The position numbers and the translations under genes were made by a program. Shown in pieces: positions 37,124 through 42,269 of a stretch of 42,269 nt of DNA. The number at the start of each line of letters is the position of its first letter. The first letter of the stretch is position 1. The stretch lies in assembly GCF_026786305.1 (NCBI RefSeq), contig NZ_JAJAYI010000015.1, positions 1 to 42,269 on the forward strand, written 5' to 3'. The stretch comes from Cryobacterium sp. GTDB lineage: Bacteria > Actinomycetota > Actinomycetes > Actinomycetales > Microbacteriaceae. The notes beneath the pieces were generated by a model. It did no database searches, was not told the origin of the DNA, and saw only the letters and a program-made list of their open reading frames with translations.

Positions 37124-37147
37124 GCGGCGGAGGGAACTATCTGCCGC
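37124..37147. terminator. Weak hairpin between sufU and fliW
   Basis: GCGGCGGA (37124-37131) pairs with TCTGCCGC (37140-37147) with one G-T wobble and an eight-base loop. No U-tract. It covers the fliW stop codon and may act as a two-way terminator between convergent units. Confidence 0.3.
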
Positions 37148-37532
37148 CGGTGCCGAGTTCGGCGTGCAGCGGCCAGTCCTGGTCGTCCAGAATGAACTGA
37201 GCGCAGGCGCCCGTGCCGGCGTTGACCACGATGGGAGCCATGAGGTTGACCGTCGTCGTGGTTTCGCCGGGGTTGACGACCACGAGAACGAGGGCGTCGA
37301 CGGGCGTGGTGATCTCGATCGCGGCGGATTGGTCATTCGAGAGGACCGGCTTATAGTCGGGCAGGTGAACCCCGGCGTCGAGTACGAACAGGCGGGTTTT
37401 CGACGTCTCGTCGGCCTGAAGCGAGTACAGCCCGTCGGCTCCGTCGATCGTGTTGAGCGTGAAAACCGTCAGCGGCGCCAACCCGGGTGGGGGAGTGACA
37501 AAGGTCAGAGTCGGGCTGGACAACGGGCTCAT
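37137..37532 (-). CDS. fliW: Flagellar assembly factor FliW
   Basis: 131 residues. FliW binds flagellin and, where CsrA is present, inhibits that regulator so that flagellin translation follows secretion. Family features visible are TLTFVTPPPGLAPLTVFTLN, ETSKTRLFVLDAG and ALVLVVVNPGETTTTVNLMA followed by PIVVN. The ATG overlaps the flgL TGA (ATGA). No csrA follows, as sufU is convergent directly after; csrA may be elsewhere or absent. Confidence 0.9.
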   Translation of the reverse strand: MSPLSSPTLTFVTPPPGLAPLTVFTLNTIDGADGLYSLQADETSKTRLFVLDAGVHLPDYKPVLSNDQSAAIEITTPVDALVLVVVNPGETTTTVNLMAPIVVNAGTGACAQFILDDQDWPLHAELGTGGR

Positions 37533-38443: not shown

Positions 38444-39871
38444 TTACCTTCCTACCAGGCCGGTGCGGTTGATGAGGGTGTCGAGCATCTCATCGACGGC
38501 CGTCATCACGCGAGCCGCGCCCTGATACGCGGTTTGAAACATGAGCAGGTTGACGTTCTCTTCATCCAGGTCGACGGATGCGTTCGCCAGCTGCTGGCTC
38601 ACCGCAAACGTGGCCGTCGAGCTGGCCAGGTTCGCCTGCTGCAGGTGTGACTGCGTAGCCACGGCAATGGTCGAAACGAAGTCCGACCAAACGGTGTTGG
38701 GGGTTGCGATCGCGCCGGCCGTATTCGTTGCCTTGCCGGCACCGAGCTGGGCGAGGCGATCGGCGATCGAGCCGTCGAACGCGCCCAATCCACTGTTGCC
38801 GGCAACAACGTCGGAGCCTGCTGTCGGCACCACTCCGAGTGTCTGCGCGGCGTTTCCAAGAACAAACGAGAAGAACGGCCCGGATTGGCCACCGACCACA
38901 TTCGTGCCCGTCGCATAGATCGCGTTGACCTTGTCGGCGAGATCTATCGCAAAGGAGTCGTATGCCTTGGCCGCTTTGTTGAGTTCGCCGTCGCTACCCA
39001 GCAGCGACAACGCCCCCGCCATCTCGCCGCCCTCAATCGAGACAGCGGACTTCGTGGTATCCGTCCACTTCAGGGTCACCGTCGCGCCGACTGCTGCACC
39101 GCCCGCCGCACCGACCGAAACCGCCATTGCGTTCGCGGTCCCACCCGTTACCAGCGCATTGCCGCTGACCAACACGTCAACCGTGCCGTCACTCTTCGCC
39201 ACAACGGATGCCCCGGTCAACGCCGAAATCGTCGTCGTCAAAACACTGCGCTGGTCGAGAAGTTCGTTGGCGTTACCGCCACCGGCCACGGTCTGGCGAA
39301 TCTGCACGTTGAGATCGGCGACCTGCTGGGCGGCGCCATTGAGCTCGGTGACCATGTGTCCGAGGTCGCTGCGCACCGACGCCCATTCATCGGTAACGGC
39401 CTGATAGCCCTGGGCGATCTGCGTCACGAGCTCGCCGGCGGTGGAGAGCACGAGGGCGGCGGGAGTTGTCGTGTCTGAACTGTTGGCGAGGCCCTGCCAG
39501 CTGGCCCAAAAGGCATCCAGTTTGGCTGAAATGCCGTCTTCGCCCGGCTCGTGTAGCGACGTCTCTATAGAGCTGAGTGAATTGGCGCGAACGGCGGTGT
39601 AGCCGGCGGCGGCGGCAGCCCCGCGAACCTGAGCGTCGAGCTGGGCGCTGCCGAGGCGTGCGATGCCGTCCACCGAGACGCCCTGGCCGATGCGCTGACC
39701 GTTCGAGAGAATGCCGGTCGAGGCGACACCGCCGATGGCTGACGTCGTGACGCGCTGCCGGGTGTAGCCGACCGTGTTGGCGTTGGCGATGTTCTGCCCG
39801 ACCACGTCGAGGCCTTGGCGGGCCGCGACCAGACCGGTATACGCGGTGTTCAATCCGCTGAAGGTGCTCAC
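38444..39871 (-). CDS. flgK: Flagellar hook-associated protein 1, FlgK
   Basis: 475 residues from GTG 39871. FlgK joins hook to filament. The start MSTFSGLNTAYTGLVAARQG and the rod/hook signature VVGQNIANANTVGYTRQRV are typical, and the C-terminal LDEENVNLLMFQTAYQGAAR is the conserved D0 end. The open frame extends upstream to 40150, but that part overlaps flgN and is not family sequence. GTG 39871 is two bases after the flgN stop, as expected of a packed operon. Confidence 0.92.
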   Translation of the reverse strand: MSTFSGLNTAYTGLVAARQGLDVVGQNIANANTVGYTRQRVTTSAIGGVASTGILSNGQRIGQGVSVDGIARLGSAQLDAQVRGAAAAAGYTAVRANSLSSIETSLHEPGEDGISAKLDAFWASWQGLANSSDTTTPAALVLSTAGELVTQIAQGYQAVTDEWASVRSDLGHMVTELNGAAQQVADLNVQIRQTVAGGGNANELLDQRSVLTTTISALTGASVVAKSDGTVDVLVSGNALVTGGTANAMAVSVGAAGGAAVGATVTLKWTDTTKSAVSIEGGEMAGALSLLGSDGELNKAAKAYDSFAIDLADKVNAIYATGTNVVGGQSGPFFSFVLGNAAQTLGVVPTAGSDVVAGNSGLGAFDGSIADRLAQLGAGKATNTAGAIATPNTVWSDFVSTIAVATQSHLQQANLASSTATFAVSQQLANASVDLDEENVNLLMFQTAYQGAARVMTAVDEMLDTLINRTGLVGR

Positions 39872-39873
39872 GG

Positions 39874-40359
39874 CTACAGGTTCCGGTCGAAGATCCGGGC
39901 GTCGGCGATCGTGGCGCCGGTGAATCCGCTGGCATCGTAGGTCTTCGGGTGGGAGGTGGCCATGGCCATGGTTTCCTGCAGGGAGCGAGCCGCAGCGCGA
40001 ATGAATCGCTCGTTGGTGTCGCGCAGCTCTTTGATCTGCGCGGTCAGGTCGCCCATCGCCGTGAGGTGAGCAGAGAAGATCTCGCTCCACGGGCCCTCCG
40101 GGGCGTTGGCAACGAGCTCGCGCAGCGTGGCATCCTCCGCGGTGCCCCACTGGGTGGCCAGGGCCGCAACCTCGACCGAGCGGCCGAGTCCGGCTTCACG
40201 CACGAGGTTGAGCACCTGTTCGACCTCGCGGGTGGCGTGCTGCAACCAGCGTGATTTGCCGCCCTGCAGTAACAGCTGTTCTTCTTCGAGCTTGAAGACG
40301 AGTAGCTCAAGAAGCTCACGTTCGCGCCAGAGCAGAGCAGAAAGTTCATTGGCGCCCAT
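39874..40359 (-). CDS. flgN: FlgN-type flagellar chaperone
   Basis: 161 residues from ATG 40359, with GGAGGA five bases upstream. FlgN keeps FlgK and FlgL unfolded for export. It is almost wholly helical: NELSALLWRERELLELLVFK, then EEEQLLLQGG (the start of the FlgN domain), then long amphipathic helices, with a flexible C-terminus. First gene of the flgN-flgK-flgL-fliW unit, divergent from the sigma factor gene. Confidence 0.85.
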   Translation of the reverse strand: MGANELSALLWRERELLELLVFKLEEEQLLLQGGKSRWLQHATREVEQVLNLVREAGLGRSVEVAALATQWGTAEDATLRELVANAPEGPWSEIFSAHLTAMGDLTAQIKELRDTNERFIRAAARSLQETMAMATSHPKTYDASGFTGATIADARIFDRNL

Positions 40360-40720
40360 GAGTCCTCCAATCACTTTTTCGTATCGTGGAGCACAGGCCG
40401 TCGCGTGTGCAGTGTCTCGTTATCAGTCACTATCGGTCCGAATGCGAGCAAGGTAAGTGGCCCCGACTGAATATCTGTTCAATTTATTGGAGGCCTGGCC
40501 CATAAGAGAAGCCCGAGAAGGCCCCAAAACGGGTGCCTCGCAGCACGATAAGCCCCATAAAGGGGGGTTCCCATTCTCTAATATAGACACAAACGCTCTA
40601 CCCACTTACCCCTGAGTGCGGTACTTTTTAAAAAAAACAGGCATTGAGGGCTCCTACGGGGGCGTAAGGGTCCTCCTGTTTCACGAACAATCGTGATTTA
40701 TTTCTCTTGGGGGACGGCTT
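40360..40720. other. Divergent intergenic region between flgN and the sigma factor gene
   Basis: 361 bases with no gene seen. It is richer in A/T and in runs than its surroundings: CCCCATAAAGGGGGG near 40550, TTTTTAAAAAAAAC near 40625-40640, and a possible hairpin around TACG-GGGG-CGTA near 40660. It must hold the promoters of both flagellar units. A sequence resembling the sigma-28 -10 (GACCGATAG, minus strand near 40430) occurs, but no matching -35 is at the right distance, so I do not call a promoter. Confidence 0.45.
40681..40696. repeat. Perfect inverted repeat in the leader of the flagellar sigma gene
   Basis: TCACGA-ACAA-TCGTGA, followed by TTTATTTCT and 24 bases before the GTG of the sigma factor gene. 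It may be an operator or a small attenuator-like hairpin. Confidence 0.5.
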
Positions 40721-41542
40721 GTGAATCGCAGTGACCGCAATGCCCTCGTGGTTGAAAATCTCCCACTCGTCGGCTACCTCGTCTCCGAGGTCTGGGCCAA
40801 GGCCCGCCACCTCTCGCGTGATGATCTGGCCTCAGCCGGCGCCGTGGCTCTGATTACTTCAGCGGATGCCTTCAAACCCGACCTCGGCGTTCCCTTCGGC
40901 GCCTTCGCCCGTCGTCGAATAATCGGTGCCTTCGCCGATGAAATGCGCTCCAACGACTGGGCAACGCGCACCGCACGCCGTCGTATCAAAGAGACCATGG
41001 CCGTGCAGGAGACGTTGTCGGCGGCACTGGGGCGCACCCCCAACGTCGACGAGATCGCGGCGGCGCTCGGTGTTGACCGCGAGAGCGCATCCGCTGGCAT
41101 GTCAGACGCCCAACGCACGCTGTCGACGCTCGATGACACCACGGCTGAGTTTCTCATCGCTGACACCGCAATGCCCGAAGAGTCGCTACTCTCGGCCGAG
41201 CGTCTCACCTACCTGCACGCCGCAATTGCGGCGCTGCCCGAGAAGATGCGCGAGATCGTCGAACAGATCTACTTCGACGATCGCCCGGTCAAAGAGATCG
41301 CGGCCGACCTCGGCATTACGCACTCGGCCGTGTCGCAGACCCGGGCAGAAGCCATCCGCTTGTTGCGTGACGGGCTCAGCACTCACTACTCCGATGACGC
41401 CGAGGCCGCACACGAGCCGGAGTCGCGCATTGCGCCGGCCCGCCGCAGCGCCTACCTCGCCCGCCTGGCCGACCTCGCAACCGTGGGCATGTCTCACGCT
41501 GCGCGGGTTCCGCTCCTCGCAGAAGAACTCGTCGCCTCCTGA
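40721..41542 (+). CDS. FliA/WhiG-like sigma factor, probable flagellar sigma
   Basis: 273 residues from GTG 40721, with GGGGGA about eight bases upstream. Region 2 reads LPLVGYLVSEVWAKARHLSR and continues with a core-binding and -10-reading helix (FGAFARRRIIGAFADEMRSN). Region 3 follows (ALGRTPNVDEIAAALGVD), then region 4 (VKEIAADLGITHSAVSQTRA) as the -35 helix-turn-helix. About 45 residues after region 4 are an unusual extension (ARRSAYLARLADLATVGMSH). The overall plan is that of the FliA/WhiG/SigD group. The divergent flagellar operon and the flagellin-like gene after it indicate that it controls late flagellar genes. Symbol left open as family membership is by pattern only. Confidence 0.85.
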   Translation: MNRSDRNALVVENLPLVGYLVSEVWAKARHLSRDDLASAGAVALITSADAFKPDLGVPFGAFARRRIIGAFADEMRSNDWATRTARRRIKETMAVQETLSAALGRTPNVDEIAAALGVDRESASAGMSDAQRTLSTLDDTTAEFLIADTAMPEESLLSAERLTYLHAAIAALPEKMREIVEQIYFDDRPVKEIAADLGITHSAVSQTRAEAIRLLRDGLSTHYSDDAEAAHEPESRIAPARRSAYLARLADLATVGMSHAARVPLLAEELVAS

Positions 41543-41663
41543 CGCCTCTGAGGGAGTCTCTCAATCGTTCCCGGTCTTCTCACTGCAACGGCGCCACAAT
41601 CAGTCACATCTTCGGCCCAGGGAAGGACCAGGGCACCCGCACCACCTCATGGAAGAAACCATA

Positions 41664-42020
41664 ATGGGCATGCAAATCAATACCTCCAGCACCGGAGCCT
41701 CCGACGCGCTGCGCAAGCTGGCCGCAGTTCAAGGCGGCCCGGCTCAGCCGACGGTTGCACGCTCCAGCGGCACTCGCAGCAGTACACCGGAGCCGACCGC
41801 CCTGCTCGACACGGTCGAGTCCAACGGTAGGGCTGCAGCCGTCGCCACCGAGAACCGCGTTGCGGCCGCCTCGACGCTGCGCGACAGCGACCTGGCCGCC
41901 AAGATGGTCGAGCAGACCAGCACCAAGATTCTGGCCGAGCCCGGCATCGCCGTGTCGGCTCAGGCGAACCAGGCCAACTCCAACGTGGCCCAGCTGCTCG
42001 AGCCCGCGCGCGCCGAGTAG
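41664..42020 (+). CDS. Mini-flagellin: flagellin N- and C-terminal segments only
   Basis: 118 residues from ATG 41664; ATG 41649 in frame would add five. The N-terminus MGMQINTSSTGASDALRKL matches the start of flagellins (usually MGxQINTNxxALNAxRxL). Residues about 62-112 match the flagellin C-terminal helix: ATENRVAAASTLRDSDLAAK, then MVEQTSTKILAEPGIAVSAQ, then ANQANSNVAQLL. Between them lie only about 40 Pro/Ser/Thr-rich residues, so nearly all of D1, and D2/D3, are missing. Normal flagellins have over 250 residues. It follows the sigma factor gene by 121 bases, on the same strand. It could be exported with the filament, interact with FliW, or be a decayed flagellin. GGAAGAA six bases upstream supports the start. 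Confidence 0.75.
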   Translation: MGMQINTSSTGASDALRKLAAVQGGPAQPTVARSSGTRSSTPEPTALLDTVESNGRAAAVATENRVAAASTLRDSDLAAKMVEQTSTKILAEPGIAVSAQANQANSNVAQLLEPARAE

Positions 42021-42095: not shown

Positions 42096-42269
42096 CTAGG
42101 TGCGCCAGTGGGGTTTTGGGCTGGGCGTATTCGCGCGGTGGCTGTGGGCGGGGCGCCAGGTTTGGGTGGGGTCCCAGAGGAGGGGGCCGAGGAGTTGGGG
42201 TCGGCCGTTGGTTATGCGGATTTTCCAGCCGTTGCTGTTGATGGTGTGGTGGTGGTACCAGCAGAGCAG
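42096..42269 (-). CDS. HNH endonuclease, DUF222 type, C-terminal fragment
   Basis: 57 codons plus TAG, running off the right edge. The fragment begins LLCWYHHHTINSNGWKIRIT and continues with GRPQLLGPLLWDPTQTWRP. This is the C-terminal end of the DUF222-HNH endonucleases found in many copies in Microbacteriaceae and Mycobacteriaceae, where LCxxHHxxI carries the last His of the HNH motif. It is convergent with the mini-flagellin gene. The N-terminal DUF222 part would lie outside the window, so it is unknown whether the gene is intact. Such genes are often linked to mobile or variable regions. Confidence 0.75.
   Translation of the reverse strand: MLCWYHHHTINSNGWKIRITNGRPQLLGPLLWDPTQTWRPAHSHRANTPSPKPHWRT

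What the first reader, a model, noticed from the sequence alone, without database searches (positions are those of the whole stretch)
41664..42020. A 118-residue mini-flagellin next to the flagellar sigma factor
The predicted protein has a recognisable flagellin start (MGMQINT...ALRKL) and a recognisable flagellin C-terminal helix (RDSDLAAKMVEQTSTKILA, then SAQANQANSNVAQLL), joined by about 40 Pro/Ser/Thr-rich residues. The flagellin core is absent. The two preserved ends form the D0 domain, which carries export and polymerisation. FliW binds flagellin near its C-terminus, and fliW is in the same locus. A small D0-only protein could cap, space or terminate filaments, titrate FliW or FliS, or act as a feedback signal. 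It could also be a decayed gene, but the intact frame, plausible ribosome site and placement argue against simple decay.
Basis: partly seen in the sequence, partly recalled or inferred. Interest (0 to 1): 0.8.

Follow-up and report, generated by a model that had tools for sequence, protein, structure and literature searches.

The report
D0-only mini-flagellin conserved in Cryobacterium
Some cold-loving Cryobacterium carry, between their flagellar sigma factor and flagellin genes, a tiny flagellin relative made only of the two flagellin ends; it is conserved by selection and may check or time filament assembly rather than build it.

Summary
The 118-aa ORF has a significant flagellin C-terminus (Pfam Flagellin_C, 32.1 bits). 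With its orthologs it also has a significant flagellin N-terminus; the core is missing. Intact orthologs occur in 16 of 57 searched Cryobacterium genomes including this one. In the 15 others the gene sits between fliA and fliC; here the contig ends behind it. In the 30 closest pairs dN/dS is 0.06-0.18, and the copies stand apart from 42 full-length flagellins: one old paralog under selection, not decay. No such short full-length match was seen in family (398) and phylum (396) samples outside the genus. It lacks the sigma28-type motif found before 36 of 42 fliC and probably rides on the fliA transcript. It shares the fliC leader: an ANGGAN-loop hairpin plus a GGA at the ribosome site, the layout of CsrA-repressed mRNAs. 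Eight positions are fixed differently from flagellin, including a proline in each D0 half. Best reading: a regulatory, exported flagellin paralog in the CsrA-FliW-FliS circuit, like Caulobacter FljJ. The function is inferred; a structural role remains possible.

The parts
40721..41542 (+). fliA-type sigma factor; the mini-flagellin start codon lies 121 nt after its stop codon
   Evidence: Pfam Sigma70_r2/r3/r4; spacing
41594..41666 (+). leader shared with fliC genes (RNA model R1 matches 41593-41666 at 47.4 bits; this copy was in the model's training set)
41614..41629 (+). hairpin GGCCCA-GGGA-AGGACC with A-N-GGA-N loop; degenerate stem here (4 of 6 pairs), 5 or 6 of 6 in the other 15 mini leaders; putative CsrA site 1
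41648..41656 (+). CATGGAAGA: ribosome-binding site containing a second GGA; putative CsrA site 2
   Evidence: sequence
41664..42020 (+). mini-flagellin, 118 aa plus stop
41664..41780 (+). D0-N part, residues 1-39, with invariant Q28-P29-T30-V31 where the genus's flagellins have K-S-L-E
41781..41825 (+). linker, about residues 40-54, variable in length and sequence among orthologs
41826..42002 (+). D0-C part with the adjoining stretch, residues 55-113; invariant E63-N64, P93 (flagellin Ala), S98 (flagellin Leu)
37137..37532 (-). fliW (CsrA antagonist and flagellin-binding protein)
   Evidence: Pfam FliW 73.6 bits
37529..38440 (-). flgL
   Evidence: Pfam Flagellin_N/_C; position within the flgN-flgK-flgL-fliW block
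38444..39871 (-). flgK (listed ORF runs to 40150; an in-frame start just behind flgN is used here)
   Evidence: Pfam FlgK_D1; start read from the translation
39874..40374 (-). flgN
   Evidence: Pfam FlgN 70.7 bits
42096..42269 (-). 3' end of a gene cut by the contig end; no Pfam match itself, 48% identical to the end of a DUF222-HNH protein in L081

Best explanation
It is a regulatory, non-bulk flagellin paralog. Origin (inferred from sequence): a tandem fliC duplicate next to fliA lost its D1-D3 core and its sigma28-type promoter but kept the fliC leader, then diverged under selection. How I think it works: the gene is transcribed with fliA, so it can be made before sigma28-driven flagellin. 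Its translation is gated by CsrA through the flagellin-type leader. The small D0-only protein occupies FliS (through its D0-C part) and possibly FliW (through its N-terminal residues and the E63-N64 region), which leaves CsrA free to hold down flagellin translation. When the hook is finished and the export gate accepts filament substrates, the mini-flagellin is exported first; FliW and FliS are freed and flagellin synthesis starts. Shown: homology of both ends, conservation, selection, synteny, separate grouping, absence of a fliC-type promoter motif, shared leader, presence of CsrA, FliW and FliS genes. Inferred: co-transcription, CsrA binding, FliS/FliW binding, export, and the order of events.
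For: Full-length orthologs in 16 of 57 congeners including this genome. In the 15 fetched relatives fliA - mini - fliC; in 19 fetched congeners without it, 17 have fliC next after fliA and 2 another gene between, of DUF222 type in the one scanned, L091. dN/dS 0.06-0.18 in the 30 closest of 120 pairs. Minis separate from 42 flagellins, and carriers fall in one clade of the fliA-flgN-flgL-fliW tree (support 0.998, 35 genomes). The sigma28-type motif stands before 36 of 42 fliC and 0 of 16 minis; none was seen in the 700 bp before fliA (258 bp in L085). The ANGGAN hairpin is in 16 of 16 mini and 42 of 42 fliC leaders with at least 4 of 5 stem pairs (53 of 29000 shuffled leaders); some stem changes are compensatory. 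CsrA and FliS are encoded; FlgM was not found. Eight columns are fixed differently in mini and fliC. Precedents, all read as passages: FljJ checkpoint (PMC7591256), FliS and FliW on flagellin (PMC6070490; PMC7248283), CsrA layout (PMC7652899).
Against: No expression, binding or export data were available. Flagellin regions 50-72 and the first part of 240-260, protected by FliW in B. subtilis, are missing, so FliW binding may be lost. L98S and G107D lie in the FliS-binding segment and could weaken FliS binding. Of the 21 genomes in its clade of the tree 5 lack the gene, so it is dispensable. The promoter argument is not exclusive: 6 of 42 fliC, all extra copies in multi-fliC genomes, also lack the motif, and an unusual promoter before the mini cannot be excluded. 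If CsrA represses the mini as well, it is part of the loop rather than a free trigger. AlphaFold gives no confident fold (pLDDT 53), uninformative for a D0 domain alone.
Confidence: 0.42

Rival explanations
1. A minor structural subunit: the D0-only helix-linker-helix protein is exported early and forms a short layer, adaptor or plug at the hook-filament junction, packed by D0 alone as in T3SS needle or rod proteins.
For: Both polymerising ends are kept; transcription with fliA would allow early export (inferred); needle subunits are helix-loop-helix proteins of similar size (recalled).
Against: Invariant prolines stand in both D0 halves where the 42 genus flagellins have none. An AlphaFold model of a genus flagellin has unbroken helices through both positions, 2-101 and 278-370, while the low-confidence mini model breaks near both. 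The D1 domain is missing. 41 of 57 congeners show no full-length match.
Confidence: 0.22
2. A secreted non-structural flagellin-like protein acting outside the cell, comparable to Campylobacter FlaC.
For: Retained export-type ends; fast-changing linker and tail (pooled pN/pS 0.69 and 0.86 against 0.33 and 0.41 in the D0 parts). FlaC precedent: start of abstract seen in the listing, PMC5466977.
Against: The conserved residues are those of D0, not of a surface; co-location with fliA and the flagellin leader point to assembly control.
Confidence: 0.13
3. The leader RNA is the functional part (a CsrA sponge on the fliA transcript) and the protein is incidental.
For: The leader is present in 16 of 16 copies.
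Against: dN/dS 0.06-0.18 in close pairs and 27 invariant residues over 16 orthologs point to selection on the protein.
Confidence: 0.06
4. A decayed flagellin gene.
For: It descends from a flagellin whose core was lost; one relative lacking the gene keeps a leader-like scrap (G344); genuinely dead ORFs behind flagellin leaders exist in the same region before fliD.
Against: 16 of 16 copies have an intact frame, with dS up to 0.6 already within the 30 closest pairs; purifying selection; separate grouping with its own fixed residues.
Confidence: 0.03

Closest known systems
Caulobacter crescentus FljJ, regulatory flagellin (PMC7591256, passages read)
   Same: A divergent flagellin paralog, expressed with early genes, cannot form a filament alone, and controls translation of the structural flagellins until it is exported; here the expression and fate are inferred.
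   Different: FljJ is a recognisable flagellin (49% identical to the others) working with FlbT and FlaF; this protein lacks the flagellin core, and its genome has CsrA, FliW and FliS.
Bacillus subtilis Hag-FliW-CsrA-FliS circuit (PMC6070490, PMC6529632, PMC7652899, passages read)
   Same: CsrA, FliW and FliS are all encoded here; the fliC and mini leaders have a GGA hairpin plus a GGA at the ribosome site.
   Different: In B. subtilis the full-length flagellin itself is the FliW ligand; no separate small flagellin is part of the loop as described in the passages read.
Full-length flagellin (FliC) of Cryobacterium
   Same: D0-N and D0-C sequences, leader, locus; D0 identity to one fliC of the same genome 33-56% in 15 genomes.
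   Different: No D1-D3, no sigma28-type motif, eight switched positions; D0 identity among minis of 15 genomes averages 0.69 against 0.98 for one fliC each.
EspA of enteropathogenic E. coli, described as a 'half-flagellin' (PMC1084347, passages read)
   Same: A natural flagellin relative reduced to part of the fold.
   Different: EspA is the complement: proposed to keep D1-like parts and lack D0; it forms a filament of another secretion system.
B. subtilis YvzB (recalled; none of the 3 papers listed names it)
   Same: A short flagellin paralog (recalled).
   Different: Recalled as keeping mainly the C-terminal part; not compared here.

Membership tests
Flagellin (FliC) family | C-terminal D0 helix region (Flagellin_C) | tested here: met
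   32.1 bits over a cut-off of 23; hhalign E 2e-19
Flagellin (FliC) family | N-terminal helical region (Flagellin_N, 139 positions) | tested here: not met
   No Pfam Flagellin_N hit; only about 37 residues of D0-N align, found with the ortholog profile
Flagellin (FliC) family | D1 core domain | tested here: not met
   118 aa, aligned ends joined by about 15 residues
Flagellin (FliC) family | Forms a filament | not testable with these tools
   needs biochemistry
Regulatory flagellin (FljJ-like) | Paralog distinct from the structural flagellins and kept by selection | tested here: met
   separate grouping, dN/dS 0.06-0.18 in close pairs, fixed switches
Regulatory flagellin (FljJ-like) | Expressed ahead of the structural flagellins | tested here: inconclusive
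   no sigma28-type motif before the gene in 16 of 16, 67-123 nt behind fliA; no transcript data
Regulatory flagellin (FljJ-like) | Controls translation of structural flagellins and is exported | not testable with these tools
   needs genetics
CsrA-repressed leader (glgC/hag type) | ANGGAN hairpin loop upstream plus GGA at the ribosome site | tested here: met
   16 of 16 mini and 42 of 42 fliC leaders with at least 4 of 5 stem pairs; GGA-containing ribosome site in 58 of 58; layout from PMC7652899 (passages)
CsrA-repressed leader (glgC/hag type) | CsrA and its antagonist FliW encoded in the genome | tested here: met
   CsrA 82.9 bits; FliW 73.6 bits
CsrA-repressed leader (glgC/hag type) | Binding by CsrA | not testable with these tools
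   needs gel shift or footprint
FlgM anti-sigma factor | FlgM profile match | tested here: not met
   the only Pfam family matching P0001 at E up to 1 was Flagellin_C; no FlgM match at E up to 5 in the whole genome

The most novel reading that the evidence does not exclude
A dedicated 'pilot' flagellin: a core-less flagellin that the cell makes with FliA and sends through the export gate first, so that its removal from the cytoplasm, sensed by FliW-CsrA and FliS, licenses translation of the real flagellin in bacteria where no FlgM was detected.
Probability: 0.3. Interest if true: 0.8.

Novelty: new variant of a known kind. Interest (0 to 1): 0.6.

Why it matters
How a cell knows that its hook is finished before it commits to making very large numbers of flagellins is a classic question. 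A natural protein that keeps the export, chaperone and polymerisation ends of flagellin and discards the rest would separate those functions cleanly. It could be tested by one deletion and a few pull-downs, and it would give CsrA-FliW bacteria a counterpart to Caulobacter FljJ. The leader found on the way also suggests that many flagellated Microbacteriaceae control flagellin through a CsrA-type switch.

Tried and rejected
Decay or chance ORF: rejected by intact orthologs, dN/dS, separate grouping and fixed residue switches. Recent independent truncations of each genome's own fliC: rejected, since minis group apart from all 42 flagellins. FlgM-like anti-sigma factor: no profile support. Terminator between fliA and the gene: none found on the + strand, and the hairpin lacks a T run. 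A known RNA family in the leader: none at E up to 1. Structure prediction of the mini was too poor for a fold search, so none was made; a genus flagellin served as control.

Results against or limiting the reading: over all 120 pairs the median pN/pS is 0.51 (range 0.09-0.75), which I put down to saturation in distant pairs. Three of 16 orthologs do not show the N-terminal match on their own. Six of 42 fliC also lack the promoter motif. Two of the five covariation measures were reached by 181 and 133 of 500 shuffles. In one search a few short-frame partial matches outside the genus (G391 46 aa, G209 53 aa, G155 136 aa with a stop, G147 89 aa with stops) were not inspected. In one search two short frames (G652 184 aa, G573 38 aa) lie near contig ends. 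In one search my FlgK query was cut out of frame, so its FlgK rows are disregarded; flgK was in no tree. One search's five-gene tree, which includes fliD, places this genome away from the other carriers; fliD of this genome groups with G405/G423, so the locus is mosaic, and the tree without fliD is the one I rely on. The 57-residue window end had no Pfam match of its own. That Hag N255 contacts FliW is recalled: the paper is not held and none of the 10 papers listed in a search for it holds the term. Alignment with 6GOW places N64 at Hag 255 (58-112 to 249-303, equal lengths).

Full report
WHAT IS THERE. The ORF 41664-42020 (+) encodes 118 residues starting MGMQINT. The window is the whole of contig C15 of a 3.06 Mb, 109-contig genome, so it ends 249 bp behind the gene. 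Relatives named show that the genus is Cryobacterium. The only Pfam match is Flagellin_C (32.1 bits, cut-off 23), and the top PDB sequence matches are flagellins over residues 57-112. The gene lies 121 nt behind the stop codon of a fliA-type sigma gene; flgN, flgK, flgL and fliW lie divergently. A flagellin C-terminus followed by fliD is on contig C67, which ends inside fliC. The last 174 nt of the window encode, on the other strand, a 57-residue end that is 48% identical to the end of a DUF222-HNH protein of a relative, a plausible cause of the assembly break.

ORTHOLOGS. In 57 genomes of the genus, 16 including this one have a full-length match; the 15 relatives are 50-61% identical in that listing and all have intact frames of 110-123 aa. 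In a draw of 398 genomes of the family and 396 of the phylum short ORFs matching over the full length occurred only in this genus; other matches were mostly flagellin C-terminal parts in long frames, with a few short partial frames not inspected. A pattern scan of one genome for each of 84,980 species returned 15 Cryobacterium loci and 4 partial matches in other bacteria. In the 15 fetched loci the order is fliA - mini - fliC (1 to 4 copies), then fliD in 14; the stretch from G428 ends before it. Of 19 fetched congeners without the gene, 17 have fliC next after fliA and 2 have another gene between, of DUF222 type in the one scanned. Another 22 congeners without a full-length match were not fetched.

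SELECTION AND AGE. In the 30 closest of 120 pairs dN/dS is 0.06-0.18; over all pairs the median pN/pS is 0.51, where I take synonymous sites to be saturated. The D0 parts are more constrained (pooled pN/pS 0.33 and 0.41) than the linker (0.69) and the tail (0.86). On a tree of D0 residues the 16 minis separate from 42 flagellins. On a tree of fliA, flgN, flgL and fliW for 35 genomes all 16 carriers fall in one clade of 21 (support 0.998) with 5 non-carriers (G344, G426, G437, G418, G425). G344 keeps a leader-like scrap, GGCCCATGGA, between fliA and fliC. One old origin with some loss is the simplest reading.

HOMOLOGY OF BOTH ENDS. A profile of the genus's flagellin N-termini scores 13 of 16 minis at 24-38.5 bits; the window copy (9.4) and two others (2.3, 2.7) are not significant alone (best shuffle 9.2 among 2987 reported of 3200). 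A C-terminal profile scores 16 of 16 at 37-68 bits (best shuffle 12.4 among 3177 reported of 3200). Profile-profile E-values are 2.5e-9 (37 columns) and 2e-19 (59 columns).

WHAT CHANGED. Eight columns are at least 90% fixed in both sets but differ (flagellin to mini): 11 A-S, 28 K-Q, 29 S-P, 30 L-T, 31 E-V, 93 A-P, 98 L-S, 107 G-D. Many flagellin residues are kept, among them Q4, N6, S34, G36, E63, N64, A99-A101, Q103, V108 and L112. A modelled genus flagellin has unbroken helices through both proline positions. The mini model breaks near them but is of low confidence (pLDDT 53). On FliS, D0-C is three or four short helices; in the filament it is one helix (PMC7248283, passages). A proline in D0-C would fit the former better; this is inference.

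PROMOTER AND LEADER. A motif (C/T)TAA(C/G)-N14-20-CGAT(A/G)(A/G), which I take for a sigma28-type promoter from recall, stands before 36 of 42 fliC and before 0 of 16 minis; the 6 fliC without it are extra copies in genomes with several. At least one fliC has it in 34 of 34 fetched relatives, and it was not seen in the 700 bp before fliA (only 258 bp available in L085). In 14 of 19 mini-less loci its CTAAC contains the fliA stop codon. In the 15 fetched carriers the same place reads CTAAC in 2 (G429, G402) and CTGAC in 8, and the CGATAG part is absent. I infer that the mini stands at the original fliC site, that fliC was duplicated behind it, and that the mini is now read with fliA. The leader is shared: a hairpin with loop A-N-GGA-N and at least 4 of 5 stem pairs is in 16 of 16 mini and 42 of 42 fliC leaders against 53 of 29000 shuffles. 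It lies 40-44 nt before the start codon in 57 of 58 as located (the script picked another hairpin in fliC_G416), and CA(C/T)GGA(A/G)GA is at the ribosome site in 58 of 58. Four of 8 stem pairs show changes on both sides; 19 cells do, reached by 0 of 500 shuffles, although two count measures were reached by 181 and 133 of 500. ANGGAN hairpin loops plus a site at the Shine-Dalgarno are the described CsrA layout (PMC7652899, passages). CsrA, FliW and FliS are encoded.

BEYOND THE GENUS. The leader model matches 45 of 150 family genomes at E <= 1e-4, 42 of them outside Cryobacterium. For 39 of those 42 I compared the place with the flagellin match: 39 of 39 lie 0.6-2 kb upstream on the same strand. 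The other 3 (G066, G097, G114) had no flagellin match listed and were left out. Rfam has no match at E up to 1. The leader is therefore probably an old flagellin element that the mini inherited.

MECHANISM. Best reading (confidence 0.42): a regulatory flagellin paralog in the CsrA-FliW-FliS circuit, made with FliA and exported before flagellin, like Caulobacter FljJ, whose export relieves translational repression (PMC7591256, passages). Against it: part of the FliW surface is absent (PMC6070490, passages), two switches may weaken FliS binding, and some congeners do without the gene. A structural minor subunit is the main rival (0.22).

NOVELTY. Searches for mini or D0-only flagellins, short or truncated flagellins, flagellin-like proteins and Cryobacterium flagellins in the held library (listings read, capped at 20 rows) showed no report of this protein. 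'Mini-flagellin' in PMC11339370 means engineered constructs (passages). Most subscription papers are not held.

Noticed in passing
window 41593-41666; fliC leaders in L064-L097; 42 further family genomes: A conserved flagellin leader (ANGGAN hairpin plus GGA at the ribosome site) occurs in many Microbacteriaceae beyond the genus and has no Rfam match; probably a CsrA switch.
   Followed up: partly
L065 from 12221, L072 from 9712, L066 from 9184, L067 from 11808 (read with fliA on the + strand): A sigma28-type motif plus flagellin leader stands before fliD with a short ORF behind it that is broken or lacks a start codon, a dead remnant close to the intact mini-flagellin gene. A further leader hit in G428 (C104:54590) was not inspected.
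   Followed up: partly
G000 contig C67 (L098 14052-15377): fliD of this genome groups with G405/G423 (87-89% identical), not with the other mini carriers, while fliA, flgN, flgL and fliW group with the carriers: recombination at the flagellin end of the locus, or a mixed assembly.
   Followed up: partly
L064, L065, L069, L072, L073: Two to four fliC genes in tandem occur in some mini-carrying species; the 19 fetched congeners without the mini show one each.
   Followed up: no
window 42096-42269; L064 6539-8131, L091 5681-7228: Genes of DUF222 type (with an HNH domain in L064) sit on the opposite strand between the mini or fliA and fliC in some Cryobacterium; a relative of such genes is cut by the contig end here.
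   Followed up: partly
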